Origin: Bradyrhizobium sp. CCBAU 53340
Lineage (GTDB): Bacteria > Pseudomonadota > Alphaproteobacteria > Rhizobiales > Xanthobacteraceae
NCBI RefSeq assembly: GCF_015291645.1
Contig: NZ_CP030055.1
Location: 3,224,001-3,288,000, forward strand
DNA: 64,000 bases
Direction: 5' to 3'
The notes beneath the pieces are model-generated. The model was not told where the DNA came from, ran no database searches, and was given only the letters and a program-made list of their open reading frames with translations. Shown one piece after another: positions 7,796 through 43,150 of the stretch; position 1 is the stretch's first letter; every line of letters begins with the position of its first letter. The translations under genes and the position numbers were made by a program.

Positions 7796-7829
7796 TTGAC
7801 GCATATCAAAATCGGACATATATCAATTT
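7796..7829 (+). promoter_or_regulatory. Tandem-repeat promoter, copy A (glutathione transferase)
   Basis: -35 TTGACG at 7796-7801, 17-bp spacer ending ATCGGACA, -10 TATATC at 7819-7824. The spacer and flank hold two direct repeats, GACGCATATCAAAAT then GACATATATCAATTT. The same architecture recurs at eight or more places in the window. The transferase starts 60 bp after the -10. Confidence 0.75.
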
Positions 7830-7888
7830 CCGGCTTGCCGCAGCGAAGGTCGGTAGCGCGGTTGTCCCTGGCTAGACAAGGAAGGCTG

Positions 7889-8500
7889 ATGAAACTGTAC
7901 TATGCACCAGGCGCCTGCTCGCTCTCGCCGCATATCGCCCTTCTGGAGGCTGGTCTTCCGTTCGACATGGTCAAAGTCGATCTGCGAACGAAGAAGCTCG
8001 AAAGTGGGGAGGACTATCTGGAGGTCAATCCCAAAGGCCAGGTCCCCGCGTTGCAACTGGATAGCGGCGAGGTCATAACAGAGGGGCCGGTCATCGTTCA
8101 GGTGATCGCCGATAAGGTCGGCAATGGCCTAGCTCCGGCCCGTGACAGCGCCGAGCGCTACAAGCTGCTCGAATGGCTCAACTTCGTCACGACGGAGCTG
8201 CACAAGAACTTCGGCCCGCTGTTTTCACCAATACTAGCCGACGACGCTAAGTCATTCTTCAGGGACCGCGTCATCGCCAAGCTAAAGTATGTCGACAGCC
8301 AGCTTGCTGGCCGCAATTTCCTGATGGGCGATCAGTTCACGGTCGCCGACGGGTACTTGTTCACAATATTAGGCTGGACCGATCCCTTAAAGTTCGATCT
8401 TTCGGGTATGGGGAGCCTGCTCGCCTACAAGGCTCGTATAGCTGCGCGCCCGAAGGTGAAAGAGGCCCTCGTTAAGGAAGGTCTGATGAAGGCGGGGTAA
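7889..8500 (+). CDS. Glutathione S-transferase (bacterial beta type)
   Basis: 203 residues from ATG 7889, which follows GGAAGG; an in-frame ATG further upstream lies inside the promoter copy A and is rejected. The start MKLYYAPGACSLSPHIALLE carries the conserved Tyr, Ser and Cys10 of the beta class, and NPKGQVPAL gives the cis-Pro of the thioredoxin fold. The C-terminal helical domain has the usual DxFTVAD-like QFTVADGYLF. It conjugates or reduces electrophiles using glutathione in the cytoplasm, and in catabolic islands such enzymes often dehalogenate or isomerise pathway intermediates. It stands alone, driven by the tandem-repeat promoter. Confidence 0.93.
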   Translation: MKLYYAPGACSLSPHIALLEAGLPFDMVKVDLRTKKLESGEDYLEVNPKGQVPALQLDSGEVITEGPVIVQVIADKVGNGLAPARDSAERYKLLEWLNFVTTELHKNFGPLFSPILADDAKSFFRDRVIAKLKYVDSQLAGRNFLMGDQFTVADGYLFTILGWTDPLKFDLSGMGSLLAYKARIAARPKVKEALVKEGLMKAG

Positions 8501-8742
8501 GGCGCGACGCTCGGGGGAGGGCGCGTCGAGAGCGTCAATCCGTTTGGAGGGCGCGGAGCTGAGGGTAGAAGGCGATGAGGTCCGCGTAATCAAAGAGGAC
8601 GCGGAGAAGGCTCGTGCTGGTGCATTTCACGAGACTTTTGGCAGTGCCTAAACACAAGGCGCACGTCTGCGGAGGAGCGTGACCTGTCGCGTGAGAGGCG
8701 GCGCTTGCTCTGCAAAGATCGGCGCTCAAATCGGAGGAGACA

Positions 8743-10326
8743 ATGACCCTTAACAGGAACGAGTCAAACGACAGCGTCGGCCAAACCTCCTTCAACGTTG
8801 ATCAAGAGCCAGACGTAGCCGCGTCGCGCCGCCAATTTCTCAAGACAGCTGCGGTCGGCGCCACAGTCGCTGCGGCTGCTGGGCCGCTCATGCCATTCGG
8901 CGCGAATGCGCAGCCTTCCGGAGAGCAAGGCAGTGACGGCATCTTGAGCCGGCTGCAGGGCTCTGAGACTGATCGCAACCGAAGGATACTACTCAAAGGC
9001 GGAATCGTGCTGTCCATGGATCGATCCGTTGGCGACTTCATGAACGCCGACGTATTGATTGAGGGAAAGACGATTAGGGCTGTCGGGCCAAACCTTTCGG
9101 CCCCCGATGCCATTGTTGTCGACGCCACGAACACAATTGTTATGCCCGGCTTTGTCAATACACACCACCATCAATTTCAAACGAACACACGTGGCTACTT
9201 CGCCGACGCGTTCTATTTTACCTCTGGACGTCGACCGGACTACCGGCGTGCGTTCATGCCTGGCGGCATCCATGAGAAGTATACACCCGAAGACGCATAC
9301 ATCGGCCAGCTCGTTGGCGGGCTCACCAACATATCCGCGGGTGTCACCACAGTGTGCGACACGTCGCAGGTGTCAATCACGCGAAAACATACGGACGCTT
9401 GCATAGATGCGTTCAAGGAGTCCGGTCACCGCACCGTCTTTGTCTTTACGAGTGGTCCGGGCAACGCCGCTAGTATGGCGGACTATGCATTTCCTCAAGA
9501 TATCCATCGCATAAAATCCCAATACTTCAGCTCCGAAGATCAGCTCATGACGCTCGGCTTGGGCGCCTTTCCTCCCGACGTCAAAGCGGTTTTCCCGCTC
9601 GCTCGCGAAATTAAGATGCCAATTTACGTTCATGTGACCGGAGCAGCCCGAAGTGCGGTGGTTGAAGAGTTAGGAATACTCGCCGACTGCACCATCATTC
9701 ACGCGATGGACCTGCCAGAGAGCGCGTGGCGGCAGATCGTGGACAACGGTGCGAAAGTGTCCATGTCCTCCGTTACCGAACCTACTGTGGCAAACGGAAT
9801 TCCGGCAATCATGGAGGTGATGAAGTACGGCATCATGGAGCGGGCGAGTTTCAGCACCGATGCCGAGGCCTTTATGACTGCCGACTTCTTCTCTCAGATG
9901 CGCGGCGCATTTATGCTTCAACGACTTCTTGCTGTACAGCTCTCTGATAACGGTCAGCGTGATGTACCCCGGCCGATCACTTGCCGCGAGGTTCTGGAGA
10001 TGTCGACGATGGGAGGCGCGGTCGGTGCGAACCTGGCCCACAAAGTTGGCTCCCTGACTCCGGGTAAAGAAGCAGACGTCATCATGCTACGAGTCGACAT
10101 GATAAATGTGTGGCCGATCACCAACGTTCCGGGAGCGATCGTAACGCTGATGGACACCAGCAATGTGGATACGGTCTTCATCGCGGGTAAAGTGAGAAAG
10201 TGGCGAGGCAGACTTGTCAACGTCGATATGGTGAAACTGCTCCGCTCGCTCGAGACCTCTCGAGACCAATTGTTTGCTCGCGCCGGCTGGAGGGTCGAGC
10301 CCTTCGGAACATGCTGCGAACGTTAG
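8743..10326 (+). CDS. Tat-exported amidohydrolase (TrzA/AtzA-like superfamily)
   Basis: 527 residues. A twin-arginine signal lies at 29-57 (SRRQFLKTAAVGATVAAAAG, then an A-N-A cleavage site), so the protein is exported folded. The amidohydrolase domain shows the first metal-binding pair in VMPGFVNTHHHQFQ (His141, His143), a further His in MPIYVHVTG, another in CTIIHAMD, and the Asp in FSTDAEAFMTADF. The C-terminal LTPGKEADVIML strand is typical of cytosine-deaminase/chlorohydrolase relatives. It would hydrolyse a C-N or C-Cl bond in the periplasm. A clear SD (GGAGGAGA) precedes the ATG. Downstream lie an outer-membrane barrel and a Tat-exported oxidoreductase, suggesting a joint periplasmic pathway. 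Substrate unknown. Confidence 0.9.
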   Translation: MTLNRNESNDSVGQTSFNVDQEPDVAASRRQFLKTAAVGATVAAAAGPLMPFGANAQPSGEQGSDGILSRLQGSETDRNRRILLKGGIVLSMDRSVGDFMNADVLIEGKTIRAVGPNLSAPDAIVVDATNTIVMPGFVNTHHHQFQTNTRGYFADAFYFTSGRRPDYRRAFMPGGIHEKYTPEDAYIGQLVGGLTNISAGVTTVCDTSQVSITRKHTDACIDAFKESGHRTVFVFTSGPGNAASMADYAFPQDIHRIKSQYFSSEDQLMTLGLGAFPPDVKAVFPLAREIKMPIYVHVTGAARSAVVEELGILADCTIIHAMDLPESAWRQIVDNGAKVSMSSVTEPTVANGIPAIMEVMKYGIMERASFSTDAEAFMTADFFSQMRGAFMLQRLLAVQLSDNGQRDVPRPITCREVLEMSTMGGAVGANLAHKVGSLTPGKEADVIMLRVDMINVWPITNVPGAIVTLMDTSNVDTVFIAGKVRKWRGRLVNVDMVKLLRSLETSRDQLFARAGWRVEPFGTCCER

Positions 10327-11307
10327 AAGACTACGGCACGAATTCAAAGAGACCGATTGATTCTCCGGACCGTGATGTCCGATTGTCCATCGGGCGGATA
10401 TGGTCGAACACGCTGCCTAGCAAAGGAAGGGCCTGGTAGCTGAGACCGTCCGGCAAATCTGAGCTATCCCGATTGAGGAGTCGCTCCGGACAAGGCTCAA
10501 ATGTAGTCTCGGCGGGACGAGGCGTAATGTCATGCAGAGAAGTACCGGCGCAGCCTGAGCGGTAAACAGCGACAAGGATTGTGACGATCGCCGCGGCCCA
10601 GGGCAGGGTTGTTTCGGCAGCAGCGGGCCAACGTCGCCACGCGTCACCGAGACCCCCCAGCTCGCCGATAATCTGTTTTTCTGGAAACTCCCGTGTAATT
10701 TTCGGGGGATGATCTTTCTGTTTCGCGTTCTCCGTCGAACCGGTCTCGCAAGCCTTTGGAAGCGGGCGCAGGGGCAGTGGTAGGGACTCTTGTCCGTTCG
10801 AGGCAAGCACTCGGAAGGTGGTCCTCACATTCACCGCGCCATTAGCGCTGCTGCGTCTGCGATCGCGAGCGCTTTTCTCACCCTATGAGTTGCATCGCGG
10901 ATTCTGCATGCCGCGTCGGAGCATGCGTGCGATCGACGAAGTGGGAGGGCATGCCAGTGATAGCCGCGAAGGACATAGGCGGGCGCATGAGCTGATGCCT
11001 GGGCTTGTAAGGCTCGCAGGGCTGCATTGCCGAGGCAGTGCTCGAACTCTCGTCGAGAAGGCGAGTGGCACAAAAGGTTCGACTTCATTCAGAGCGGTCG
11101 CTCGTACTGTTGCCGATTTATGACTCCGCCGTGGATTCAATGGTGAGGACCTAGATTGGGTTCTGAGAACCACAAGCGAGCGGCTCCTTGGTGTCAATTC
11201 AGAGTGTTCGCGGTCCGACTGCAAATCAGGCGCGGCAAATGGAGGAAGCATAGGGTGAGGCCGATGCATCATGCACGGTCTTGGCCCGTTCATATAGAGG
11301 GGGACAA
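10327..11307. other. Long gene-free region before the porin gene
   Basis: Almost 1 kb with frames of up to 167 codons on the minus strand, none of which has a convincing start, ribosome site or recognisable motif. The composition (many Arg, Pro, Ser) is that of shadow frames. It may be decayed sequence; no hairpin or repeat stood out. Confidence 0.45.
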
Positions 11308-12405
11308 ATGTTAAACTATGAGAGACTACGGGCGGCAGCACTTTCCATCGCCATGATTGGGTCAGCTAGTATGGCAAACGCTGCGGACCTTTCGGTGAAG
11401 GCGAAAGAGGCGCCACCGGCAGACCCTCCATTCTTCCTGGTGAACGACAATCGGCTGACGTTTTCCTGGATGCCACAAGGCACGGAGCCAGGGGCTTATT
11501 CGCGGCGTCCCGACGGGTCAATTGATGGTAAGACTGCAAAGCAGGTCTACTCCTTCACACACTTCGACGTTTGGGCCTATGGCACCAACTCGTTCAATAT
11601 TTCTCTGCTTAAGTCGGATCACAATAACCCGGCACACCCGTGCACAAATGCCGGGATAATCCAGACGAGCTTTACCAGTCCGGTGGTTGCAGCCACTTGC
11701 TCGGGAGCAAGCGACGTTACCGGGCAGTTGCGCTCGACCTTCGGGTGGAATGAACTCTTCAACACGAAGACGTTCACTGCGGGGCCCCTGAAGAACATCT
11801 CATTCGTCGTCGGTTTGGATGGCGGCACCGAAAACAACTTCTTGTCTCCGGCCAGGCGTGACGTCGTCGCCGGTCTGCAATTCCAATTCGATTTGCCATA
11901 TAAGGGCTTCTTGAATGTCGCGCCGATGGCGTTCTGGGAGTTCTCCAACAATAGCGCGTACGCTCAATGCGGAAGTAGTTTCGCCGGCACTATTCCGGGT
12001 GTGAACTGCCTGATCGACGGCACCAGAAGATACAATCCGACATGGTCGATTGAGGCCAACTACTACATGGATCTCGGATTTCTGCCAGAAAACATGCAAT
12101 TCTTCTCAGTTAGCGGCCGTACTGCAATTATCGGAAAGAGAGGAAATGAGGCCAATCCGCTCCCTGGCCTCAGTACCGCTGTACAGTACTTTTCCGAGCC
12201 CATCCGCCTGACCTTCGACGCGAGCAAGGCGGTTTGGGGAGCCAAGTACTCACATTTTGTCGACCTATGGGTGTCTTACCGATACTGGCAAAACAAGTTC
12301 GGACTTGACCACAGCGTGAGCAGGACCTGCAACGTTTCTCCAGGCGTGAGCAACAACACTTGCACCGAATCCACTGTCTACGCTGGCGTCACGGTTAAAT
12401 GGTAG
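11308..12405 (+). CDS. Outer-membrane beta-barrel protein, possible channel
   Basis: 365 residues from ATG 11308, preceded by GAGGGGGAC; the longer frame start at 11281 has no ribosome site. A Sec signal peptide is clear (RLRAAALSIAMIGSASMANA, cleaved before ADLSVKAKEAP). The mature part is rich in alternating aromatic strands (FTHFDVWAYGTNSFNISLL, FSVSGRTAII) and ends in VTVKW, an aromatic C-terminal residue as needed for barrel insertion. Length and pattern suit a 12-strand nucleoside-channel or meta-pathway (phenol) porin-like barrel. It sits between two Tat-exported enzymes and so could admit their substrate through the outer membrane. Two cysteine pairs in loops are unusual. Confidence 0.8.
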   Translation: MLNYERLRAAALSIAMIGSASMANAADLSVKAKEAPPADPPFFLVNDNRLTFSWMPQGTEPGAYSRRPDGSIDGKTAKQVYSFTHFDVWAYGTNSFNISLLKSDHNNPAHPCTNAGIIQTSFTSPVVAATCSGASDVTGQLRSTFGWNELFNTKTFTAGPLKNISFVVGLDGGTENNFLSPARRDVVAGLQFQFDLPYKGFLNVAPMAFWEFSNNSAYAQCGSSFAGTIPGVNCLIDGTRRYNPTWSIEANYYMDLGFLPENMQFFSVSGRTAIIGKRGNEANPLPGLSTAVQYFSEPIRLTFDASKAVWGAKYSHFVDLWVSYRYWQNKFGLDHSVSRTCNVSPGVSNNTCTESTVYAGVTVKW

Positions 12406-12466
12406 TTGCGGCGACGTGGCGCGTTGAGCGGCCAGCCTTTAGCACCAAATAGCGATCTCGCGAAAA

Positions 12467-12487
12467 GGGGCTTCCGATGGAAGCCCC
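12467..12487. terminator. Hairpin after the barrel gene
   Basis: Perfect 9-bp stem GGGGCTTCC/GGAAGCCCC with a GAT loop, 62 bp after the barrel stop. There is no T-run on the plus strand, but TTTT follows on the minus strand, so plus-strand termination would be weak. It also lies 200 bp before the GMC gene. Confidence 0.5.
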
Positions 12488-12688
12488 TAAAGCTCCTGAC
12501 CGATTGCTGCTGGATGGCTTGGTGCAGTGGACGGAGCGGCGTACCTTCTGAGTGCAACGCAGCACATCTGCATATTTGGACCAGTCAGCAAGGTTTACGG
12601 GGGCCATTCCGGAGCAAGCCACGGTTCTCAACGTGAGCCCGGCCTGGAACGTGCGCAGCTGGTACCAAATTCAATGGAGGTTAATTCC

Positions 12689-14436
12689 GTGTTAGATAAA
12701 GATCCGAGCCGTAACACCAGCCACATTGATCGGCGCCAAGATGTACTCGAGGGCGCACTTCTACGCGGCTCGATCACCCGCCGTGCATTTGTCACAATGT
12801 CGCTGGCATTGGGCTTTCTTTCAGCCAGTCGTATCGGCGCGCTCGCGCAAACGTTGGACGAAATTAAAACCAATCAGGCAGCACGAGCCAAAGCGTTGTC
12901 CGGGAGCTACGACTACGTTGTATGCGGAGCAGGCACCGCAGCGTGTGCGCTCGTCGGCAGGTTGGCCCTTGACAGCAGCAAGAGCATTCTTCTGATCGAA
13001 GCGGGCGGATGGGACGACGCGCCGTCGATCCTCAATCCCAGCATCTGGTTCACCAATATTGGCACCGAGCGAGCCTGGAGCGACGTAACGCCACCGTTCG
13101 CCGGCATCAACAACCGTTCGATCCTCGAGCAAACAGGTAGGGTGTTGGGTGGGGGCAGCAGTATCAATGCCGCCTGCTGGGTGCGCCCGTTCAAGGATGA
13201 TTTCGAATTCTGGGCTAACGAAGCCAAGGATGAGAGGTGGGGTTATGAGCATGCACTTTCCATATATCGCCGGGTCGAAAATTGGCGAGGCACGCCGGAT
13301 GACAGATATCGCGGTAAAGATGGACCTGTTTGGTGCCAACCTGCAAAGGACCCTTCGCCGGTCGCGCCGGCGATGCTCGAGGCTTGCCGAGCACTCGGTC
13401 TCCCTGTGATAGAAGACTCCAACGGCAAGCGTGAAGAGACGGGCGAAGGGTTCGCTTACTTCAATCACATTGTCCGGGACGGCCAGCGACAAAACATGGC
13501 GAAGTCCTATCTCTACCCTGTGCTGAATAAAAAGAACGTCACGCTGTTGGTTGATACCCAGGTCGATCGCCTTTTAATCAAGAACGGAAAGGTTAGCGGA
13601 GTCGAGTTCGTCCGCGATGGGAATAGGCAAATCGTTGCGGCAGAGCATGAGGTCATCGTTTGTGGCGGCGGCATCAACACGCCACGATTGCTGATGCTGA
13701 GCGGCATCGGTGACGAGAAGCATCTCAGGTCCGTCGGAATCGAGCCCGTGGTTCATAGCCCCGAAGTAGGCAAGAATTTCCAAGACCATATTCTACACCG
13801 GGGCTGCCTCTGGGAGGCCCAGAAGAAGGTAGAACTACGAAATTCGGGGGCGGAAGTACTGGGTTATCTGAAGAGCGACCCGTCTCTCAATCGTCCCGAC
13901 ATAAGCGTGGTCCAAGTGGAATCGCCAATCACGACCGAGGTCATATCAAAGAAGTATAGCCGCCATCAACGAGCTGGGCGCTCTGTTCAGCTGTAGTCGC
14001 GCCGAAAAGCCGCGGTCAACTCAGGTTGAAATCCAGCGATCCAAGGGACCGACCCATTGTCGAACCGAATTACTTGAGTCATCCGGAGGACGTTGCGGCG
14101 CTGATGCGGAGCATTGAGGTTTGTCGACAGATTGGAAACTCGGCGGCGATGCGTCCGTTTGCGCTACGTGAGGTCGCCCCTGGCAAGGATCTTAAAGGTG
14201 AGGAACTTGCCAACTTCGCCCGCGACGGAGCTTCGACATTTTATCATGCTAGTGGAACGTGCCGCATGGGCGCAGATCCACAGGCAGTTGTCGACGCGAA
14301 GCTGCGCGTCAATGGAGTCAGCAACCTTCGCATTGCTGATAGTTCTATCATGCCGCGGATTCCCGGTGCGGCCTTGATGGCTGCATGCGTGCACATTGGC
14401 GAGCGTATGGCAGAGATACTTTCGGCCCCAGCCTAG
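12689..14436 (+). pseudogene. Tat-exported GMC oxidoreductase broken by a frameshift
   Basis: Start GTG 12689 has GGAGG eight bases upstream. The product has a twin-arginine signal (ITRRAFVTMSLALGFLSAS, about residues 29-54) and the FAD-binding VVCGAGTAACALVGRLA at 77-93, followed by GGGSSINAACWVRP. The frame is lost near 13958-13962; adding one C to AGCCGCCA restores YSPPSTSWALCSAVVAPKSR and joins the second half (SSDPRDRPIVEPNYLSHPED, then the catalytic His in YHASGTCRMG). The Asn or His usually found near the C-terminus appears replaced by Ala in PGAALMAACVHIGE. The family oxidises alcohols, sugars or amines in the periplasm. Without the frameshift it would be about 580 residues. A recent mutation or sequencing error is possible. 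Confidence 0.87.
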
Positions 14437-15605: not shown

Positions 15606-15645
15606 TGGACATAACATAATTTCGGTCGTATCATAATTTCGTGAA
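15606..15645 (+). promoter_or_regulatory. Tandem-repeat promoter, copy H
   Basis: -35 TGGACA at 15606-15611, 17-bp spacer, -10 TATCAT at 15629-15634. The direct repeats read GACATAACATAATTTC and GTCGTATCATAATTTC, 18 bp apart. It precedes a very short frame at 15698 and, 250 bp further, a regulator gene. Confidence 0.65.
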
Positions 15646-15745: not shown

Positions 15746-15897
15746 CCGGTTTGACTTCTACGATGCGATCCGGCCGGTAAGAGACGGCAGCCCTCTATGT
15801 AGCCGCGCTGGACGGCCAAAAGTCGCTTCTTTCTTTTTCATGGGTCTGACGAAACCCCAATGCATTGGTCACACGACCACACACGCGGGAGAAGCAA

Positions 15898-16419
15898 ATG
15901 TCCCCGAGTCGCCTCCTGTTGCGATCGAGTCCTGGTCCTAGTCGTGAAGCGGACCATAGAGGAAGCACAGTTGATACGCTGGCCCGGGATGCCATGGGAA
16001 GAAACAGATCATTTGTAGTTCCAGGAAGCGTGGATCAGACCGGCGAGGAGCGTGGGCTGGAGCAGTCGGCTTTTGATGATGGCCATTGTTGGCCAGGAGA
16101 CATTCAGAAGAGCCGGGAGAAGATGGTTCGACTACTGCGCCTATTTTCATCGCCCCGGAAGCGGCTGGGTCTTACCCCCGATGAGGTGCTCATCTTCCTT
16201 GCGATCGGCTATCTTTGCACGACGACTACGAACTGTGTTGTTCAACTCACGCCGATCGGCTTAATCGATGTGGCGACGTTGCTCGGAATCCCGAAAGAAA
16301 CGGTTCGTCGAAAAACGGGCAGGTTGGCAGATCTTGAGTACGTGAGCTGCACTCCGAAAGGGGTCATGATCAAGCAACCCAAGGTGTGGTGTGATATGTT
16401 GAATCGTGCTCTTGCCTGA
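15898..16419 (+). CDS. Winged-helix DNA-binding protein, putative regulator
   Basis: 173 residues from ATG 15898, with GGGAGAAG before it. The N-terminal 75 residues are low in recognisable structure and rich in Arg, Ser and Asp. The rest is a compact helical domain with a helix-turn-helix (LIDVATLLGIPKETVRRKTG, then LADLEYVSCTPKGVMI as the wing), resembling MarR- or Crp-type winged helices; the central LFSSPRKRLGLTPDEVLIFLAIG is the connecting helix. The family cannot be named with confidence. It lies downstream of tandem-repeat promoter copy H and upstream of the molybdenum hydroxylase operon, so it may regulate either. A minus-strand terminator follows it. Confidence 0.7.
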   Translation: MSPSRLLLRSSPGPSREADHRGSTVDTLARDAMGRNRSFVVPGSVDQTGEERGLEQSAFDDGHCWPGDIQKSREKMVRLLRLFSSPRKRLGLTPDEVLIFLAIGYLCTTTTNCVVQLTPIGLIDVATLLGIPKETVRRKTGRLADLEYVSCTPKGVMIKQPKVWCDMLNRALA

Positions 16420-19929: not shown

Positions 19930-19965
19930 CAAAAAATAGTACATGTACGATTTTGCGCGTGTCAA
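19930..19965 (-). promoter_or_regulatory. Tandem-repeat promoter, copy I (weaker)
   Basis: On the minus strand: TTGACA (19965-19960), then CGCGCAAAATCGTACATG and TACTAT as a possible -10 with an 18-bp spacer. The AAAATCG core is shared with copies A to D, while GTACATGTAC is a palindromic variant also seen near copies E and J. It points at the 2Fe-2S gene. Confidence 0.5.
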
Positions 19966-25587: not shown

Positions 25588-25624
25588 TTGACATATGACA
25601 AATTCGGACATATTGCAATTTGAT
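25588..25624 (+). promoter_or_regulatory. Tandem-repeat promoter, copy B (lpxK)
   Basis: -35 TTGACA at 25588-25593, 17-bp spacer, -10 TATTGC at 25611-25616. The direct repeats are nearly perfect: GACATATGACAAATT then GACATATTGCAATTT. It points at lpxK, whose ATG is 144 bp after the -10, and lies 215 bp upstream of the divergent esterase. Confidence 0.78.
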
Positions 25625-25759
25625 CTCGCTCGTTCTTTCTTTCGGGATTTCGATCTCTAGATCGGGTTCAAGCCACGGTCGCGCGACTCGCGTTGAGTCC
25701 GACATCGCCCGCGCTTGAGCTCTGTCCGCTGCGCCTTCAGATCGACATGGGAGCCAACA

Positions 25760-26815
25760 ATGCATGAGCCTGCCTTCTGGTACCAGCCACGCTCGCCGTT
25801 GTCGTATTTGCTCCGCCCGTTAGGAGGGCTATATGGCGCAATCGCCGCCCGGCGTATGGCGCGTGAGGGCCTCGAACCTTGCATCCCCGTGATCTGCGTC
25901 GGGAATTACCACGCCGGCGGCGCAGGCAAGACCCCGACCGTGCTCGCATTGACAAGCCTCTTGCGTGAGCTCGGCGAGAGCCCAGCTGTGGTGAGCCGCG
26001 GTTACCGTGGCCGGCTAAGGGGCCCAGTAATGGTCGATCGCCAGCATCACAACGCCTCCGATGTCGGCGATGAGCCGCTGATGATGGTGAATGAACTGCC
26101 AGTCGCGGTGGCGCGAAACCGTCTCGGCGGCGTCGCGCTCGCCAAGTCTCAGGGCGCGACCGCCATTTTACTCGACGACGGCTTTCAGGACCCGCGCATC
26201 ATGAAAGATGCCGCGCTAATTGTGATCGACAGCGAACGTGGCCTTGGCAACGGCCAGGTGTTTCCGGCGGGTCCGCTTCGCGGGCCGCTGAAACCGCAGA
26301 TCGCGCGAACTGATGCGTTGGTCCTGATAGGCGATGGTCATGCCGCGGACTATGTGGCGGCTGAGATCGCGATGCGCGACAAGCCGGTCCTGCGCGCGCG
26401 TCTGAAGCCTGACTCCGCCACGGTTGCCAAGCTGGTCGGCAAGCGGGTCCTGGCATTTGCCGGCATCGGGGATCCCGAGCGCTTCTTCCGAATCCTACGG
26501 TCGAACGGCATCGAGGTCGCATGCACGCATCGCTTCACAGACCATCACATGTTCTCCAAGGCCGATATTGAAGCGCTCTCCGCCAGGGCGAAGCGCGAGC
26601 AGCTCACGCTTGTGACCACGGAAAAGGATCTTGCGCGACTGCTCGGCAGCAATCTGTACGACCAGGCCATGCCTTTCGCGGTCGAGATCGAGTTCGACGA
26701 TCCGGCAGGGCTCCGGGCAGCGATCAGCACTTATCTGTACAGGGCCCGCGAACGGTGTCGCTTGGCTGAGCGGCTTCAGGCCAGCGTCCACGCGCTGGCC
26801 GGTTTCACCGTCTGA
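25760..26815 (+). CDS. lpxK: Tetraacyldisaccharide 4'-kinase
   Basis: 351 residues from ATG 25760, preceded by GGGAGCC. LpxK phosphorylates the 4' position of tetraacyldisaccharide 1-phosphate in lipid A synthesis at the inner membrane. The N-terminus MHEPAFWYQPRSPLSYLLRP is typical, with the Walker A motif VGNYHAGGAGKTPT at 47-60, LLDDGFQDPRI as the LpxK signature and the C-terminal TDHHMFSKADIEALSARA. The gene looks intact. It is out of place among catabolic genes, standing alone rather than next to other lipid A genes, and it follows a copy of the tandem-repeat promoter. It is probably a second lpxK or one acquired with the island. Confidence 0.93.
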   Translation: MHEPAFWYQPRSPLSYLLRPLGGLYGAIAARRMAREGLEPCIPVICVGNYHAGGAGKTPTVLALTSLLRELGESPAVVSRGYRGRLRGPVMVDRQHHNASDVGDEPLMMVNELPVAVARNRLGGVALAKSQGATAILLDDGFQDPRIMKDAALIVIDSERGLGNGQVFPAGPLRGPLKPQIARTDALVLIGDGHAADYVAAEIAMRDKPVLRARLKPDSATVAKLVGKRVLAFAGIGDPERFFRILRSNGIEVACTHRFTDHHMFSKADIEALSARAKREQLTLVTTEKDLARLLGSNLYDQAMPFAVEIEFDDPAGLRAAISTYLYRARERCRLAERLQASVHALAGFTV

Positions 26816-27153: not shown

Positions 27154-27188
27154 TTGACATATATCAAAATCGGACATATTACAATTTC
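27154..27188 (+). promoter_or_regulatory. Tandem-repeat promoter, copy C (M24 and ABC operon)
   Basis: -35 TTGACA at 27154-27159, 17-bp spacer, -10 TATTAC at 27177-27182. The repeats read GACATATATCAAAAT and GACATATTACAATTT, 17 bp apart, the best copy in the window. The M24 gene starts 72 bp after the -10 and an ABC importer follows. Confidence 0.8.
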
Positions 27189-27254
27189 GCGGCATCCGGG
27201 TCCATCGTGGCATCGGATGCGGCGCCGACTTCCTATTTTGTTGAGAGGCTCCCC

Positions 27255-36270: not shown

Positions 36271-36978
36271 TCATCCAACCGGCTCTGCAATGGTAGTGGT
36301 GAGCGCGCCCAATCCTTCGATCTCGACGACGCAGACGTCTCCGGGCACCAATGCGCCGACGCCTGCGGGGGTACCGGTATAGACGAGGTCGCCCGGCACC
36401 AAGCGTACAGCACGAGAGAGAATCGAGATGATCTCCGGTACTGACCAGATGAGCTCGGAAAGGTTGGCGCTTTGACGAACAGTTCCGTTGACGGATAACC
36501 TGATCCCACCAGAGGCGAGCCGACCGACCCCTGCAGCCGGGTGGATTGGACCGCATACGGCCGACTTGTCGAATGCCTTGCCCCAGTCCCAGGGCCGACC
36601 CTTATCACGCGCCTCCAATTGCAAGTCTCGGCGGGTCAGATCGTTGCCGATCGCGTAGCCCCAGATTAAGTCCCAGGCACTTTCTTCCGGCACGTTGAAC
36701 CCGGGTCGCCCGATCGCGACGACAAGTTCGGCCTCATGCTGGAAGTCCTTCGTCAGCGGCGGGTAGGGCACAATGGCCCCGTCGTCCACCACTGCATCCG
36801 CAGGCTTGGTAAAGAAGAACGGTGCTTCGCGCGAGGGGTCCTTGCCCATCTCGCGGGCGTGGGCCTCGTAGTTTCGGCCGACGCAGAAGATTCGGCGAAC
36901 GGGAAAGCGTGTGGCTTGTCCATGGACGGCTGCGCTTGAGGTCGGAATGGGGTCGAACACGAAACTCAATCTGGTCAT
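36271..36978 (-). CDS. Fumarylpyruvate hydrolase (FAA-hydrolase family)
   Basis: 235 residues from the ATG at 36978 (the frame is open another 25 codons upstream without family similarity). It has the fumarylacetoacetase fold: FCVGRNYEAHAREMG near the N-terminus, then KDFQHEAELVVAIGRPG with the two metal-binding Glu, GYAIGNDLTRRDLQ with the Asp, and DLVYTGTPAGVGALVPGD at the end. It cleaves fumarylpyruvate, the isomerised gentisate product, to fumarate and pyruvate. The KDPSREAPFFFTKPADAV stretch is typical of gentisate-pathway members (NagK-like). It is the first gene of the minus-strand block and lies downstream of the Lrp regulator. Confidence 0.93.
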   Translation of the reverse strand: MTRLSFVFDPIPTSSAAVHGQATRFPVRRIFCVGRNYEAHAREMGKDPSREAPFFFTKPADAVVDDGAIVPYPPLTKDFQHEAELVVAIGRPGFNVPEESAWDLIWGYAIGNDLTRRDLQLEARDKGRPWDWGKAFDKSAVCGPIHPAAGVGRLASGGIRLSVNGTVRQSANLSELIWSVPEIISILSRAVRLVPGDLVYTGTPAGVGALVPGDVCVVEIEGLGALTTTIAEPVG

Positions 36979-37059
36979 CCTTTTCGATATGCAATTTCTA
37001 TCGGAGCCCGTATCGGTCCGAGAGAAAGCGGAGCATCGGGCCGTCTTTAGCAACGATGC

Positions 37060-37530
37060 TTAGGGGACTGGCAGTGCCTCAGAACGTTTCGTTTGTACCA
37101 AAGCGAAGCTGGTCTCAATTGAGGCTATGCCTTCAAGGCGCGCCAGCTTCTCCCTCAAAAAGCGCTCGTAGGCCCTTAGATCGCTGGCGACTATTCGTAG
37201 CAAAAAGTCGCGCTGCCCTGTCATCAGGTAGCAATCGATAACTTCCGGCCAACTCATCACGGCTGCTGCAAAGCGGTCGACGTGCTCCTCGGTCTGACGT
37301 TCGAGTTTGACGGATGCGAAGGCGCTGACCGGCAATCCGACCTTTTCCTGGTCAATGATGGCGGCATAGCCTTTGATGATGCCGCTGTCCTCAAGCTGCC
37401 GCACTCTGCGGGCACACGGAGACCCGGACAGGCCAACCTTTTCGGCTAGGTCTCCAATCGTGATCTTGCCGTCGCATTGAAGGGCCCTAATGATCTTTTT
37501 GTCGATCGCATCTAGGTTGGCAACCGACAT
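37060..37530 (-). CDS. Lrp/AsnC-family transcriptional regulator
   Basis: 156 residues from ATG 37530 (MSVANLDAIDKKIIRAL); a start 29 codons upstream is open but unlike the family. The N-terminal helix-turn-helix (ITIGDLAEKVGLSGSPCARR) is followed by the RAM ligand domain with GYAAIIDQEKVGLPVSAF, MTGQRDFLLRIVASDL and an IETSFAL strand. It stands 82 bp upstream of the fumarylpyruvate hydrolase gene on the same strand, so it is likely the local regulator of the gentisate genes or co-transcribed with them. Effector unknown. Complete. Confidence 0.92.
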   Translation of the reverse strand: MSVANLDAIDKKIIRALQCDGKITIGDLAEKVGLSGSPCARRVRQLEDSGIIKGYAAIIDQEKVGLPVSAFASVKLERQTEEHVDRFAAAVMSWPEVIDCYLMTGQRDFLLRIVASDLRAYERFLREKLARLEGIASIETSFALVQTKRSEALPVP

Positions 37531-37823
37531 CCTCAGTCTTCCCACCTTGTCGTCATTGTAAGTGGCCAGGTCGCTACTCCTGGCTCGAGTGGTCTGAGCT
37601 CTTTGTGTGAGGGCCATGTCGGGAACCTAGTTGATGAATCGCGCCCTTGCTCCGCTTATGACCAATCCCTGGAACCGGTAGAAACAGGATTAGATCTGCA
37701 TTGCGGATCGGCGGCTTCAGACCGCCGCATGCGCGAAGCGGCATCACATGCCCCTCCGCGAATGCGAGGCCGCCAACCGTTCACACCGTCCCGCGGCCTC
37801 GTGTCGACCCATCCGGATCTGAA

Positions 37824-38405
37824 TCAGCTCCGGGTATGTGGCCAGTTATGGTTCAAGTCTTTCCACGGAATGAAGCCGACACCCGGGGCTCCCATCATCC
37901 TTGCTTTGTCCTCGGGGTACCCCTCCCAAGTGCAGATCTCGAACTTGTGGCCCTCCGGTGATTTGAAGTACACGGAAACAATATCGATATCACGGTGGCT
38001 CATCGGCCCGAAGAAGGGGATGCCTTCCTTCTTCAGACGCGCGATGTTCATATCAAGTCCTGCTACCGAGGTCCTGAAGCCATAATGCGGGGATATGTTG
38101 GGGTCGTCGGGCTGCGGCGTAGACGGGCCTGCTTCTTCCGTACATTGCAGAAGCGAGTGACCGATCCGTAGGAAGAGGTGGGGCTTACGGCCCATCTTCT
38201 TGTCCGTCTCATCGAAGCCTGCGTAATAATAGGGTTCGCCTCCCATAAACTCGCGCACGAAACGCTCCATGAGAGCTACGTTCTGGCTGGTCAATGCAAA
38301 GTGGTCCAACCCCCACAACCCAAAGGCATTGTCGACTTTTTCTTCGCGGCCGCCGACCTTGGGATTAAGGTTGGACAGGTGCGAGGCCGTTTCTTTCGTG
38401 GTCAT
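37824..38405 (-). CDS. VOC-superfamily protein (extradiol dioxygenase-like)
   Basis: 193 residues of vicinal-oxygen-chelate fold: two beta-alpha-beta-beta-beta modules, the first from GLWGLDHFALTSQNVALMER and the second from HYGFRTSVAGLDMNIARLKK. Candidate metal ligands are His in LDHFAL, His near SPHYGFR and Glu in SPEGHKFEICTWEG, the layout of glyoxalase or catechol 2,3-dioxygenase relatives. The family includes ring-cleavage enzymes, glyoxalases and fosfomycin resistance proteins, so the reaction is open; a small single-domain-pair size argues against a classical two-domain extradiol dioxygenase. Its promoter is copy F of the tandem-repeat promoter. Confidence 0.82.
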   Translation of the reverse strand: MTTKETASHLSNLNPKVGGREEKVDNAFGLWGLDHFALTSQNVALMERFVREFMGGEPYYYAGFDETDKKMGRKPHLFLRIGHSLLQCTEEAGPSTPQPDDPNISPHYGFRTSVAGLDMNIARLKKEGIPFFGPMSHRDIDIVSVYFKSPEGHKFEICTWEGYPEDKARMMGAPGVGFIPWKDLNHNWPHTRS

Positions 38406-38570
38406 CCGTCAAACTCCTCCTATGTTCAGAATATCCCATGCGCTTTTTCAGAGTGCCGTCTGCGAAGCGGGGCGGTCTTCGCTCGACTTGCGCCCACTTA
38501 AGGTCGAGTGCTCGCCGCTCAAATTTCCCCGGCCAAAGGCGTTCTCAAAGAGCGGCGCGGCGATAAAAAT

Positions 38571-38600
38571 GATATAGGACCGAAAATGATATATGTCCAG
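38571..38600 (-). promoter_or_regulatory. Tandem-repeat promoter, copy F (VOC gene)
   Basis: On the minus strand: -35 TGGACA (38599-38594), 17-bp spacer, -10 TATATC (38576-38571). The direct repeats are GACATATATCATTTT and GTCCTATATCATTTT, 17 bp apart. The VOC gene starts 166 bp after the -10. Confidence 0.72.
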
Positions 38601-38756
38601 TATTTATTGTCCGCTTCGAAGCACCCCCGGCTGTGGGCCTCAAGAAGGCCGGCCGGCATCAGCGGCGAGCCTCTATTTAGAGCGGTCCTCTACCGCCCAG
38701 CCGCCGGCACACCGGCATCGTTTATTAGGAGGGAGAGTCTGAATCGCGTCCGGTGC

Positions 38757-38790
38757 TTGACCAAGAAAAATGTACCATGTACAATTTTTG
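38757..38790 (+). promoter_or_regulatory. Tandem-repeat-like promoter, copy J (TetR gene)
   Basis: -35 TTGACC at 38757-38762, 17-bp spacer, -10 TACAAT at 38780-38785. The dyad TGTAC-CAT-GTACA at 38771-38783 covers the -10. The sequence differs from copies A to D but shares spacing and the trailing AATTTTT. It points at the TetR gene at 38974. Confidence 0.5.
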
Positions 38791-38973
38791 CTTGCGGTCA
38801 GTTTGCTGCTGAACAAGCCGAAAGTGGCGTTGGTCGCTGGGGCACTCCATCTGCAAGCAGCATTGTCAATTTCGCTATTTTTGTACGAAGCTGCCGCAGG
38901 GAAGTGGAGATCCTCGACGGGAGCGCTGATACGCTTCCATACAGGGTTCGGCAGATAGCAATCAGCGGATAAG

Positions 38974-39753
38974 ATGAAGTCAAAGGCAAAATCGAAGACG
39001 CAGCGTTCCAGCACGCGCGCTCCCTCTCGTGACAAGGAACAGCCTCACGACGTTTATCGCATCCGTGGCGCGAATGCGGATCATGTGGAGACGTTGGGGC
39101 TTAGAGAGCAGAATAAAGTCGACAAGTTTCAGCGAATCTACGCGGCCGCGCGCCGTCAGTTCGCCGAGGTTGGCTACGACGGCACGACGCTTCGCGACAT
39201 CGCCAAGGAAGCGCGCGTAGCTCTCGGGACCCTCGGGTTTTACGCCGAGAACAAGCGTGAGTTAGTGCTGCTCATATTCAATGAGTTCATGCCTCCCGTG
39301 ATAGAACGCTGCCGAGAAGCCGGCATCTATCAAGGATCGCTTGTGGACGCGGTCGTCGCTCATTTCCGCCCGGTGTACGCCGCATACGCCGCCGAACCCG
39401 ATCTTTTTCGCACCATCCTGCGCGAGAATGTTTTTCACACCACGTCTCCCCATGCGCGCGAGTTCAGTCGTATTCGTCTCGAAACCGTCAGCCATCTTCG
39501 AGACATCGTATCCAAGGCGCGCGACGCGGGGGAAATCATGCCATATATCGACGTAGACTTGGCCGCTCGCACAATCTTCTATCTCATGTTCGCGTCGGTG
39601 CGTTGGTGGCTCCATACAACCAACAAGCCATTGGTCGAGCCCGGACTCGCGGAGCTGAGAACAATGACTGCTCTGCTTCTCGATGGAATGAAAAGCGGTA
39701 AAGCGGAGGTCGCTCCGGCCACGCGCCGCGCTCCGGTTCGCAATCGCACATAG
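38974..39753 (+). CDS. TetR-family regulator with a basic N-terminal extension
   Basis: 259 residues, about 50 more than usual. The first 45 residues are rich in Lys, Ser and Arg (MKSKAKSKTQRSSTRAPSRD) and probably disordered. The helix-turn-helix is in FAEVGYDGTTLRDIAKEARV followed by ALGTLGFYAENKRELV, then a long helical effector domain of TetR type. It lies between the VOC gene (divergent, under copy F) and the carboxymuconolactone-like gene (co-directional, under copy D), and it has its own copy J. That makes it the best candidate in the window for the regulator that reads the tandem-repeat promoters, but this is only positional inference. Confidence 0.88.
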   Translation: MKSKAKSKTQRSSTRAPSRDKEQPHDVYRIRGANADHVETLGLREQNKVDKFQRIYAAARRQFAEVGYDGTTLRDIAKEARVALGTLGFYAENKRELVLLIFNEFMPPVIERCREAGIYQGSLVDAVVAHFRPVYAAYAAEPDLFRTILRENVFHTTSPHAREFSRIRLETVSHLRDIVSKARDAGEIMPYIDVDLAARTIFYLMFASVRWWLHTTNKPLVEPGLAELRTMTALLLDGMKSGKAEVAPATRRAPVRNRT

Positions 39754-39818
39754 CTAGATTGGATTCGCGCGTTATTGCCTGTGCTCGGGGGCGTCGGCCG
39801 CAACCGCGCAGCCAAATA

Positions 39819-39852
39819 TTGACACGTCATAAAATCGGACATATTGCAACTT
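39819..39852 (+). promoter_or_regulatory. Tandem-repeat promoter, copy D (carboxymuconolactone-like gene)
   Basis: -35 TTGACA at 39819-39824, 17-bp spacer, -10 TATTGC at 39842-39847. The repeats are GACACGTCATAAAAT and GACATATTGCAACTT. The gene starts 129 bp after the -10. Confidence 0.75.
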
Positions 39853-39975
39853 GAGGGGCTCGCCATCTATGAGCCGCTTGATGACTGGGGTTGCCTTGGA
39901 GCTCCCCCATCCGCGCCAGCGTCAAGCCGAGCGCGCCCTATTCCTTTTGCAACAAGCCCAGTTTGGAGGTGTGCA

Positions 39976-40569
39976 ATGCCTGCGTCTGAGAACTCATCTC
40001 GGCTCGGGACCTCGACAGCGGAAGATGACCGGATCAATGAGGCGTTTTCGGCGATCCGCGCTCGAGGCGGCGACATCCTGAACATACATAAGACATTGTG
40101 CCATTCTCCCGCGATGCTAAGAGCTCAGTCGGCCTATGCGACCGCTCTCCGCGGAGACTCCTCGATTCCCAGGCCGCTACAGCAGTTGATGATCTTGCGT
40201 ATTTGTCAACTGAACGACGGCGCATATGAATGGAGTGTGCACATCCGGGTGACGGTAAAACTCGGTGTACCCCTTTCAAAAATTGAAGCACTCAAAGCCT
40301 GGGTTGATTCAGATTTATTCTTGACCGACGAGAGGGCGGCACTTGCATTCGTTGATCAAGCTTGTGGTGCCGACGGCGTGGATGACGAAACGTTTCAAGC
40401 GGTGATCGACGCGTTTGGCGCACAGGGCGCCGTAGATTTGGCCGCCCTCGTGGCTTGGTATGTCGGGAATACGCGTTTTACCAAAGCGCTTCGAATCACG
40501 CCGGAAACGACCGGGGTGGAAATGGAGTCCGTCGACGCGAGACCCACGCGACCAACTCCGGGTGGATGA
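39976..40569 (+). CDS. Carboxymuconolactone decarboxylase/AhpD-like protein
   Basis: 197 residues from ATG 39976 with GGAGGTG before it; a longer frame from 39844 lies across the leader. The core helical pair ILRICQLNDGAYEWSVHIRV is the AhpD/CMD signature, but the redox CxxC of peroxidase members is absent; only one Cys is there and Y-E-W-x-x-H is kept, as in the subgroup of carboxymuconolactone decarboxylase-like proteins of unknown reaction. The leader and first codons are repeated as a remnant at 28585. It is driven by promoter copy D. Function in ring-cleavage product handling is plausible, not shown. Confidence 0.88.
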   Translation: MPASENSSRLGTSTAEDDRINEAFSAIRARGGDILNIHKTLCHSPAMLRAQSAYATALRGDSSIPRPLQQLMILRICQLNDGAYEWSVHIRVTVKLGVPLSKIEALKAWVDSDLFLTDERAALAFVDQACGADGVDDETFQAVIDAFGAQGAVDLAALVAWYVGNTRFTKALRITPETTGVEMESVDARPTRPTPGG

Positions 40570-40704
40570 TGATGAAGCGCGACGGCGCGCGCGGCTTCCA
40601 GGCCCTACCTGCGGGAGGACCTGAACGCCAGCGCTAAGGAAGCGGCCTGATTGCGCCGTCAATTAGCCGGCCCCCGTCCAGAATGATACGAACGTTAAGT
40701 TCGA

Positions 40705-42795
40705 CTATGCCGCGCGAATCTTGGCGAGGAAATTATGCACCTGCTCGCCGAGTCCGCGGCTTTGTATCTCCAGCGTTTCGGAAGCGAGCTTCACGCTCTC
40801 GGCCGCACCTGCTGCTGTATCAGCGTCTGCTTTTACGCCGGAGATGTTGTCCAATACGTTTTTAGTGCCCTGCGCCGCGTATTGCGTGCTTCGCGTGATC
40901 TCTTCGGTCGCCGCGCCTTGCTCCTGAACCGCAGCGGCAATCGAGGTTGCCACCTCATTGACCTCACCGATAATACCGCCGATCGCCTGAATCGCATTGA
41001 TAGCATCGCCAGCCACTCTCTGGATGTCCGCAATCTGTTCGGAAATTTCCTCGGTTGCTTTTGCCGTCTGGCTCGCCAGCGACTTCACCTCGGAGGCGAC
41101 CACCGCAAATCCCCGCCCCGCGTCCCCCGCTCTGGCAGCTTCGATAGTAGCGTTAAGCGCAAGCAAATTGGTCTGCGCTGCGATACTGGTGATCAGACCG
41201 ACTACCTCACCAATCCGGTCGGCCGATTTCGCAAGCCCCTGTACCGTGGCATCCGTTTCCCGAGCCTGGTTCACAGCACGACTCGCAATACCTGCGGCAT
41301 GCGAGGCCTGCCAGCTGATATCGTTGATCGAGGCGCTCAATTCCTCCGAGGCCGAAGCTACGCTCTCGACGCTTATGGAAGCGTCGCCGGAAGCCTTTTC
41401 GGCGACCTGAACGCGGTGGTTGGTCTGGCGCGACACGGCCGATAGGTCGCCGGATGTCTTCCGCATCTCGCCGGAGGCCTCCTTCAACTCATTAAGGGAT
41501 TTGCGAACACTGCCCTCGAATTCGCCGACATACGCTTCGATGGCGTGCTGGCGCGCGATCGCGGCGGCATTGCGCTCGCGTTCTTTGCTTTCCATCTTCA
41601 ACTTCTCGACGGCTTGATGTTTGAATGTCTCCAGGGCGCCGACGAGCGATCCGATCTCATCGCCTCGATGAGCGTAGCCCGTTTGAACGGAAAGATCGCC
41701 AGCGGCGACCTTCAACATGGCATCGCGGATCTTATGCAACGGGGTGATCACACGTCGCCTGACCATCACCATCGCGCCAACGCTCAATAGGATTGACCCT
41801 GCCAGGATCGACAGCTGCAGGACCAGTGATCTAAGGGCAACGGAATACAGGATCCGTGCGCGCTCCTTGGCGGCATCGAGGGCGGCTTCGGCAACGCGGA
41901 CCGTCGTTGACAGACGGCCAGAAGTGATGACATTCCACTGAGTCGCCGTCAGTTCGGCCTTCTGGCCCTGCTCAAGGGCAATAAGTAAGCGATCACGCAG
42001 CGAGAGCAATTCTGGGTCGAAATATGCGCTTTTGTTCGCAGTCATGGCGGTGGAAATCGCTTGTGGCAACTGCATGGTAGCGGTCGTCAATTCAAGCGCC
42101 TTCCACGCAGCGTCGACGCCGCCGTTGGATCTGATGTAGTTGTTCTTGAGCTCTGGCGTGACACGCCCTTCCATTAGTCCAGCCGTAACAATCGAAACAG
42201 CTTCGCCAGCCGTGCTTCGTAACAACCAGGCGACCTGCTTTATCGCAAGCAGTTGGTCGATCACGGCGTCCTTGTGGTTGATATCGACGGCCAGGACAGC
42301 CGACAACTTCCCCAATGTGGCAAGCAGCGCATTCGCCGTTTCCGTATACTCTTTTGCGAGCCCTGGACGACGAGGCGCCTTGGGTTGCCTTATAAGCTCC
42401 CAGAATTCCCGTTGCTGGGACAACAAAGTTTTGAAGAGTTGGTCGAATTCGGGGATCAGGATACCCTTCGACTCGAAATCGATCTTCTCAAGGACAGCGA
42501 GCGCGTTTGCCATCGCCGGTACTTCCGCGTCGCGGAGTTGCCGCAGATATTTTTCAGTGTCGCTATCGATAGGGGCGTCGGCATTGAGATAGCTGCTGGA
42601 GAGGCGGTCGGTGCGGAGATTATGCATCGCCGCGAATAAGTTTGCGGAAGCGTCCGAGATCACGGAAATTCGGCTTGCGACTAGTAAGCGCTGCCAGCCA
42701 TCCCATGCATTGAGCGAGAATACGACCACGACGCAGAAAGCTGCGGCGAAAATCACGATCTTCAGTAGCGCCGATATAGTCAACCGATTCAACAT
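40705..42795 (-). CDS. Methyl-accepting chemotaxis protein
   Basis: 696-residue transmembrane chemoreceptor. TM1 is at about 10-30, a periplasmic sensor domain of about 290 residues follows, helical and with no recognised ligand motif, TM2 is at about 325-345 and is followed by a HAMP linker ([20 protein letters not shown]). The signalling domain has the hairpin tip motif [20 protein letters not shown] and [15 protein letters not shown], which contact CheA and CheW. The C-terminus lacks the CheR-binding pentapeptide. A receptor beside catabolic genes usually senses the pathway substrate. A weak tandem-repeat copy G is upstream on the same strand. Complete. Confidence 0.95.
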
Positions 42796-42904
42796 TCGTT
42801 TCTCCAGAACCTCGCTGTAGATGAATTGCGTCGCTATCAGCCGGCGGCAGCCTCATCCGCTCCCACCGGTATCGAGAGAGAAAACCGCCTTTTTGGAGGC
42901 GAAT

Positions 42905-42940
42905 CTAAAATTAGTATATGACCGAAAAAGCTAATCGCTC
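42905..42940 (-). promoter_or_regulatory. Weak tandem-repeat-like site, copy G (chemoreceptor)
   Basis: On the minus strand: GATTAGCTTTTTCGGTCATA and then TACTAATTTTA. A good -10 (TATACT, 42918-42913) and the CGGTCATAT core match the family, but the -35 is poor (no TTGACA at 17 bp) and the first repeat is degenerate. The chemoreceptor starts 118 bp downstream. Confidence 0.4.
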
Positions 42941-43116
42941 CTTGACGTCGAGATCGCGGTAGAATGCGGAGGAGGATTAACGCCAGAGTTTCCTTTCCAG
43001 GATAGCGCGAACCCCCGGATTCATTGAGCATCCGCCCGCCTGGCGCGTATCCCAACCCGAGGCCCGGCCAGTCCTCGGCAGCCGCCGTCCTCGCCCTCCA
43101 AAGCGCCAAAAACTGA

Positions 43117-43150
43117 TTGACGACATGAAATCGGACATGTACATTTTTAG
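43117..43150 (+). promoter_or_regulatory. Tandem-repeat-like promoter, copy E
   Basis: -35 TTGACG at 43117-43122, 17-bp spacer containing GAAATCGGACATG, -10 TACATT at 43140-43145. The core ATCGGACAT is as in copies A to D. No intact gene follows for 1 kb; the next on this strand is the 2Fe-2S gene at 44164. A gene that used it may have been lost. Confidence 0.55.

What the first reader, a model, noticed from the sequence alone, without database searches (positions are those of the whole stretch)
7796..43150. A recurring promoter made of two direct repeats marks an unnamed regulon
Seen: copies A (7796), B (25588), C (27154), D (39819), F (38599, minus) and H (15606) share -35 TTGAC/TGGAC, exactly 17 bp, a TAT-type -10, and two direct repeats close to GACATATnnCAAwTT spaced 16-18 bp. 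Weaker copies are E (43117), G (42905), I (19965) and J (38757). The repeats overlap -35 and -10, so binding would block polymerase. Inference: one repressor controls a glutathione transferase, lpxK, an M24/ABC operon, VOC and carboxymuconolactone-like proteins. Repeated intergenic sequence this alike cannot be explained by the sigma factor alone, since the spacer is as conserved as the hexamers.
Basis: partly seen in the sequence, partly recalled or inferred. Interest (0 to 1): 0.78.

Follow-up and report, generated by a model that had tools for sequence, protein, structure and literature searches.

The report
TetR operators repeated across catabolic island
Ten look-alike promoter switches clustered in one stretch of a probable Bradyrhizobium genome are most likely all controlled by one repressor encoded among them, which would turn a set of aromatic-degradation genes on and off together; the design is familiar, but this regulator and its DNA code look undescribed.

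Summary
Sites A, B, C, D, F and H are at the stated coordinates: TTGAC/TGGAC, 17 bp, TAT-type -10. In the 8.72 Mb genome a strict 34-base pattern finds these six places and no other; 0 of 264 other genomes of the genus have it. Likeness is confined to about 36 bp (71% identity; flanks 26-30%), so these are not copied leaders. Matrices from the six and from the weak copies E, G, I, J largely recover each other, with E, J and H below the random maximum: ten related sites in 35 kb.

The repeats are best read as degenerate TetR palindromes, core GGACAT(A/G)T, doubled in the six strong promoters. The best candidate regulator is TetR 38974-39753, whose leader carries site J. A 61% relative has two such sites flanking its gene. 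Distant relatives sharing its recognition-helix core mostly lie in catabolic clusters with TGGACATGTCCA palindromes; relatives with a changed helix do not. The targets suggest an acquired aromatic-degradation island. Binding, repression and inducer are inferred. New member of a known kind.

The parts
7796..7831 (+). Site A: -35/-10 promoter with tandem operator boxes, upstream of glutathione transferase (ATG 7889, ends 8500)
15606..15641 (+). Site H: tandem operator promoter (most diverged copy); next ORF of 100 aa or more, 15865-16419, has no family match
19932..19954 (-). Site I: near-perfect palindrome (10 of 11 pairs) with TTGACA-18-TACTAT, about 450 bp upstream of [2Fe-2S] (19512-19027) and Mo-hydroxylase (19117-16904) genes on the minus strand
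25588..25623 (+). Site B: tandem operator promoter, upstream of a second lpxK copy (ORF 25715-26815)
27154..27189 (+). Site C: highest-scoring tandem operator promoter, upstream of M24 enzyme (ATG 27255) and a same-strand run of ABC transporter, WrbA-like and amidohydrolase genes to 34165
38564..38599 (-). Site F: tandem operator promoter, upstream of VOC gene 38405-37824; Lrp/AsnC, FAA hydrolase, gentisate-dioxygenase-like and maleylpyruvate-isomerase-like genes follow on the same strand (operon not shown)
38757..38788 (+). Site J: TTGACC-17-TACAAT with a partly palindromic operator, 217 bp upstream of the TetR start (predicted autoregulation)
38974..39753 (+). TetR-family regulator (259 aa), predicted regulator of all ten sites
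39819..39854 (+). Site D: tandem operator promoter, upstream of carboxymuconolactone-decarboxylase-like gene (ATG 39976, ends 40569)
42907..42929 (-). Site G: single operator without a clear -35, about 110 bp upstream of a methyl-accepting chemotaxis protein gene (42795-40705)
43117..43149 (+). Site E: single operator with TTGACG-17-TACATT, upstream of the 43561-46828 block ([2Fe-2S] and Mo-hydroxylase genes)

Best explanation
The sites are operators of one TetR-family repressor, encoded at 38974-39753. Each operator is a degenerate palindrome, about AAAATCGGACATATnnCAATTT, laid over the spacer and -10 of a sigma-70-type promoter. Six promoters carry a second box about 17 bp upstream that doubles as the -35 (TTGACATAT/TGGACATAT), so two dimers could sit side by side and shut out RNA polymerase. 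A ligand, probably a substrate or intermediate of the pathway, would release the repressor and switch on the island together: transport, chemoreceptor, Mo-hydroxylases, GST, VOC, CMD and perhaps the gentisate-type ring-cleavage genes, plus the repressor itself. Shown here: the sites, the confinement of the strict pattern to the island, the relation of the sites to one another, and the association of this TetR clade with like palindromes in other bacteria. Inferred: binding, repression, two-dimer occupancy, ligand, and which genes respond.
For: (1) Ten related sites in 35 kb; the strict pattern occurs nowhere else in 8.72 Mb. (2) Their position over -35 and -10 suits a repressor. (3) Site I is a palindrome with 10 of 11 pairs matched. 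(4) TetR 38974 has no other close relative in the genome (next: 28% identity, E 1.7e-6), and J lies in its leader. (5) In Bradyrhizobium MAG L040 (61% identical TetR) the two best matrix hits of 14.6 kb (25.8 and 21.6; best of 200 random sequences 13.7) flank the TetR gene, one of them ahead of an MFS gene. (6) Distant relatives with helix VALGT(L/V)xxYA: sphingomonad loci L041-L046 hold 4, 7, 2, 3, 3 and 3 copies of ATGGACATGTCCAT (up to 2 mismatches); 200 control palindromes average 0.02-0.06 per locus, maximum 1-2, in the four loci given controls, L041-L044. In L041 and L042 they stand ahead of MFS/Rieske, VOC and TonB genes, and in L042 also aldehyde dehydrogenase; L041:1161 and L042:901/928 were not placed. 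Agrobacterium leguminum L053 has a tandem pair ahead of a Rieske oxygenase gene. (7) The 8 loci whose TetR helix reads VG(M/L/I)GT (L054, L062-L068) have 0-2 twelve-base matches, against control means of 0.46-0.83. (8) For 5 of the 10 TetR homologs with a longest contig over 20 kb, a homolog of the window's VOC protein has the same longest-contig length.
Against: Two relatives with a VALGT helix, L047 (14.9 kb, Actinobacteria) and L050 (3.6 kb), show no palindrome: of 11 VALGT loci, 7 fit by the TGGACATGTCCA pattern, 2 (window, L040) only by the window's own motif, 2 do not fit. The window has 0 and L040 0 matches to ATGGACATGTCCAT, and the window is not enriched for the twelve-base form (4 against a control mean of 2.65); the link is the shared core and helix. 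With the twelve-base form 14 of 179 control palindromes do as well as the true one in L053, 0-4 in L041-L046. The right halves of the tandem boxes are poor palindromes. J and E are weak by the six-box matrix; G lacks a -35; the targets of B and H are odd or unclear. Looser patterns also hit outside: 11 of 18 places for a palindrome pattern with up to 3 mismatches and 2 of 9 for a half pattern; one of the latter scores 26.5, above site E, though inside a 278-codon open frame. The whole genome could not be scanned with the matrix. L044-L046 look like near copies, so independent lineages number about five. Other regulators sit in or beside the island (TetR 4670, LysR 6413, Lrp/AsnC 37060, LuxR 50357).
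Confidence: 0.77

Rival explanations
1. Another regulator of the island, most likely the Lrp/AsnC protein at 37060-37617 or the LysR at 6413-7372, binds the repeats.
For: Both lie in or next to the island; Lrp-type proteins can bind arrays of A+T-rich sites (recalled).
Against: Like motifs accompany the TetR clade in L040, L041-L046 and L053. The 18 annotated features around the L053 TetR include a MarR but no Lrp or LysR, and the 10 L040 proteins scanned include an IclR and no Lrp or LysR. Site I is a palindrome as TetR proteins use.
Confidence: 0.1
2. The sites are promoters of a dedicated sigma factor, conserved because of polymerase recognition alone.
For: Hexamers and an exact 17-bp spacing are conserved.
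Against: The spacer and the sequence past the -10 are as conserved as the hexamers; E, I and J keep the operator core with other hexamers, and I with another spacing. The hexamers look ordinary sigma-70 type. No sigma-factor family passed its cut-off among the window proteins scanned, which were not all ORFs.
Confidence: 0.05
3. The sites are copies of one leader spread by duplication or by a small mobile repeat, without common regulation.
For: Among A, B, C and D local matches run 15-39 bases at 87-100% identity; an IS110 transposase gene lies nearby.
Against: Mean identity falls from 0.71 to 0.26-0.30 outside 36 bp; the sites lie upstream of genes with promoter-like hexamers; strict copies exist nowhere else in the genome.
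Confidence: 0.03
4. TetR 38974 binds but acts as an activator, or as a dual regulator in which the upstream box recruits polymerase.
For: Tandem direct boxes are known from activators (recalled); box 1 lies at the -35.
Against: Box 2 covers the spacer and -10, where bound protein would exclude polymerase; the closest solved relatives include FadR proteins described as repressors.
Confidence: 0.08

Closest known systems
TetR family, FadR-like regulators (Bacillus subtilis FadR 3whb/3whc, Thermus FadR 3ang/3anp)
   Same: TetR fold; among the closest solved chains by sequence and by fold
   Different: Only 24-27% identity and TM 0.53-0.61 by query; aromatic-type rather than fatty-acid gene set; FadR's operator is different (recalled); ligand unknown
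MbdR of Azoarcus sp. CIB (3-methylbenzoate pathway; 4uds)
   Same: Specific regulator of an aromatic catabolic cluster (start of abstract of PMC4424350 seen; TetR family and repressor action recalled); weak sequence match
   Different: E 3.7e-5 only; works with 3-methylbenzoyl-CoA in an anaerobic pathway (abstract start)
TetR/VOC catabolic clusters of sphingomonads (Hephaestia caeni L042, Sphingomonas MAG L041) and Agrobacterium leguminum AT13 plasmid p1 (L053), for which I found no description
   Same: Same recognition-helix core; TGGACATGTCCA-like palindromes ahead of catabolic genes; VOC, Rieske oxygenase and cupin genes; L053 also has ABC, 3-hydroxybenzoate 6-monooxygenase, FAA hydrolase and maleylpyruvate-isomerase-like genes
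   Different: 33-39% TetR identity; more perfect palindromes; other tandem spacings (21 in L053, 26 and 31 in L042) against 17; Rieske oxygenases where the window has Mo-hydroxylases

Membership tests
TetR/AcrR family regulator | N-terminal TetR HTH domain | tested here: met
   PF00440 E 1.2e-12, 47.8 bits, cut-off 24
TetR/AcrR family regulator | All-helical TetR fold with C-terminal ligand domain | tested here: met
   AF2 mean pLDDT 83.4, ten helices; best PDB hits are TetR proteins
TetR/AcrR family regulator | Palindromic operator overlapping promoters, with autoregulation | tested here: inconclusive
   Palindrome clear at I and in relatives; degenerate at tandem sites and J; binding not tested
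TetR/AcrR family regulator | Ligand-released repression | not testable with these tools
   Needs binding and expression experiments
FadR (acyl-CoA responsive TetR) | Close sequence and structural match to FadR | tested here: inconclusive
   Among the best solved matches but 24-27% identity; acyl-CoA pocket not examined
FadR (acyl-CoA responsive TetR) | Fatty-acid degradation regulon | tested here: not met
   Genes next to the sites are aromatic-type catabolic, transport and chemoreceptor genes
Genome-wide regulon | Strict sites at several distant loci | tested here: not met
   All six strict matches lie inside the window; looser patterns have other hits

The most novel reading that the evidence does not exclude
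A previously undescribed TetR clade travels between alpha- and possibly betaproteobacteria as the control head of exchangeable aromatic-degradation modules. Its GGACATGTCC-like code is kept while target enzymes are swapped (Rieske oxygenases in sphingomonads and Agrobacterium, Mo-hydroxylases here), and in this island the operator has been built into the -35 and -10 boxes themselves, capturing unexpected genes such as a spare lpxK and a chemoreceptor.
Probability: 0.4. Interest if true: 0.5.

Novelty: new member of a known kind. Interest (0 to 1): 0.38.

Why it matters
It assigns a likely DNA code and regulator to a whole catabolic island from sequence alone, with a pairing that recurs in several other bacteria. 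That gives a directly testable prediction (one protein, ten promoters) and a handle for finding like clusters and their substrates.

Tried and rejected
Genome-wide regulon: not supported, strict sites are confined to the window, though the genome could not be scanned with the matrix. Duplicated leaders: rejected by flank comparison. Elsewhere in the genus: 0 of 264 other genomes have the strict pattern, and 1 of 264 has a TetR of this clade at E up to 1e-40 (G170; its contig has the same length, 15,745, as the L040 record, and the same motif hits, so it is probably the same MAG).

Searches that led little further: TetR alone in genome contigs gave nothing. The order and phylum samples gave 3 of 396 and 0 of 397 other genomes at E up to 1e-25, a five-genome family only the two relatives already known, and a sample of 394 genomes of another family 5 distant relatives at E up to 1e-30, all with the changed helix. 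A1 used 22 of the 25 relatives. Papers: seven searches were answered; I saw listings and starts of abstracts, and passages of PMC13273656 (PheR is discussed there as an IclR-family regulator, set aside). I saw no description of this regulator or operator; I read no paper whole. The GGACATGT search listed 15 of 250 papers, none on such a regulator by title, and 'tetr' there also matched unrelated words. In one search the rows L017, L018, L020, L021 and L051 were translated in the wrong strand or frame and were ignored. In one search a separate palindrome listing near the TetR genes showed nothing common to the loci.
Full report
Observation. They share TTGAC/TGGAC, 17 bases, and a TATnnC-type -10 (TATCAT in H). 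Each omitted copy is recovered by a matrix from the other five at rank 2 to 7 of the window as printed. A 34-base pattern with up to three mismatches finds 6 places in the 8,716,512-base genome, all inside this window, and 0 with the control pattern. Of 265 genomes of the genus only this one has it. Mean identity among the six is 0.71 in the site and 0.26-0.30 in the flanks; the repeat period is 17 bases in 5 of 6, while in D 15 is marginally better.

Genus. The records are unnamed. So the host is probably Bradyrhizobium.

The weak copies belong to the same set, with unequal strength. A matrix from the six downstream boxes ranks G, I, J and E at 8, 9, 10 and 15, but only G and I exceed the best of 30 random windows. 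A matrix from E, G, I and J brings 5 of the 6 strong boxes above its random maximum, H falling short. Site I is a palindrome with 10 of 11 pairs matched. The shared element is a palindrome-like block, about AAAATCGGACATATnnCAATTT, lying over the spacer and -10; in six promoters a second block sits upstream over the -35.

Looser scans. A half-site pattern with one mismatch finds 9 places in the genome, 7 of them in the window (control 3). A palindrome pattern with three mismatches finds 18 places, 7 in the window (control 3). Of 13 outside loci scored with the ten-site matrix, one reaches 26.5, inside a 278-codon open frame; the next is 15.6.

Targets. Reading away from each site: A, glutathione transferase; H, an unassigned ORF; I, [2Fe-2S] and Mo-hydroxylase genes; B, a second lpxK (the other copy, at 6.92 Mb, scores higher); C, an M24 enzyme and an SsuA/NMT1-type ABC transporter with WrbA-like and amidohydrolase genes; F, a VOC protein (no Pfam match itself; named from homologs), with Lrp/AsnC, FAA hydrolase, gentisate-dioxygenase-like (below its curated cut-off) and maleylpyruvate-isomerase-like genes following; J, TetR; D, a carboxymuconolactone-decarboxylase-like protein; G, a chemoreceptor; E, a further [2Fe-2S]/Mo-hydroxylase block. 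The set reads as an aromatic-degradation island; substrate, operon limits and response are not known. That it was acquired is inferred from its absence in the genus and the mobile-element genes nearby.

The regulator. TetR 38974 has 25 database relatives at E up to 0.001. In the genome it has no other close relative, and among 264 other genomes of the genus only G170 has one. In L040, whose TetR is 61% identical, the two best matrix hits lie on either side of the TetR gene, scores 25.8 and 21.6, against a best of 13.7 in 200 random sequences. In sphingomonads at 36-39% identity, ATGGACATGTCCAT-like palindromes occur 2 to 7 times per locus (L041-L046), against control averages of 0.02-0.06 and maxima of 1-2 in L041-L044; the window and L040 have none of this exact form. 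In L041 and L042 they stand ahead of MFS/Rieske, VOC and TonB genes, and in L042 also ahead of an aldehyde dehydrogenase gene; L041:1161 and L042:901/928 were not placed. In Agrobacterium leguminum (33%) a tandem pair 21 bases apart stands ahead of a Rieske oxygenase gene, in a cluster with ABC, VOC, 3-hydroxybenzoate 6-monooxygenase, FAA hydrolase, maleylacetoacetate isomerase, cupin and maleylpyruvate-isomerase genes. The recognition-helix core VALGT(L/V)xxYA is shared by these and by TetR 38974. The eight loci with VG(M/L/I)GT show 0 to 2 twelve-base matches against control means of 0.46-0.83. Against: L047 and L050 have VALGT and no palindrome. With the twelve-base form, 14 of 179 control palindromes do as well as the true one in L053 and 0-4 of 179 in L041-L046, and the window is not enriched.

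Linkage. For five of the ten TetR homologs with a longest contig over 20 kb, a homolog of the window's VOC protein has exactly the same longest-contig length, which suggests that TetR and VOC travel together; contig identity was not checked directly.

Mechanism. Shown: sites, confinement of the strict pattern, palindrome and helix association. Inferred: TetR 38974 binds all ten, blocks polymerase by covering -35 and -10, probably as two dimers at the tandem sites, regulates itself through J, and is released by a pathway compound. The model (mean pLDDT 83.4) is nearest to FadR proteins, which hints at, but does not show, a CoA-thioester or similar ligand.

Verdict. Most likely a real, local TetR-type regulon with an apparently undescribed operator code and an unusual -35-embedded tandem layout; not a new kind of system. 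I saw no description of it in the listings searched, a library that lacks most subscription journals.

Noticed in passing
4590-4612: A different palindrome, AAAATTAC-N7-GTAATTTT, just upstream of a second TetR gene (4670-5263); looks like that regulator's own operator.
   Followed up: no
25715-26815: Second full-length lpxK in the genome (308.7 bits; other copy at C1:6921818, 328.4 bits), sitting in a catabolic island.
   Followed up: partly
12527-14436: A GMC (choline-dehydrogenase-like) oxidoreductase gene split over two ORFs matching different parts of the same model; looks broken.
   Followed up: no
15865-16419: 184-aa ORF downstream of site H without a family match; by eye it resembles a winged-helix DNA-binding protein.
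   Followed up: no
50357-51924: LuxR- and LuxI-type quorum-sensing pair beside the island; an IS110 transposase follows at 52608 and ArdC- and ParB-like genes after it.
   Followed up: no
L015:1500-1522 (own genome C1, near 5337442): The only matrix hit above 20 among the 13 out-of-window own-genome loci scored (26.5), inside a 278-codon open frame; probably chance.
   Followed up: partly
own genome C1:7638467-7638486 (L029): An isolated palindrome AAATCGTACAGGTACGATCT resembling site I, 2 mismatches on both strands; matrix score only 10.0.
   Followed up: no
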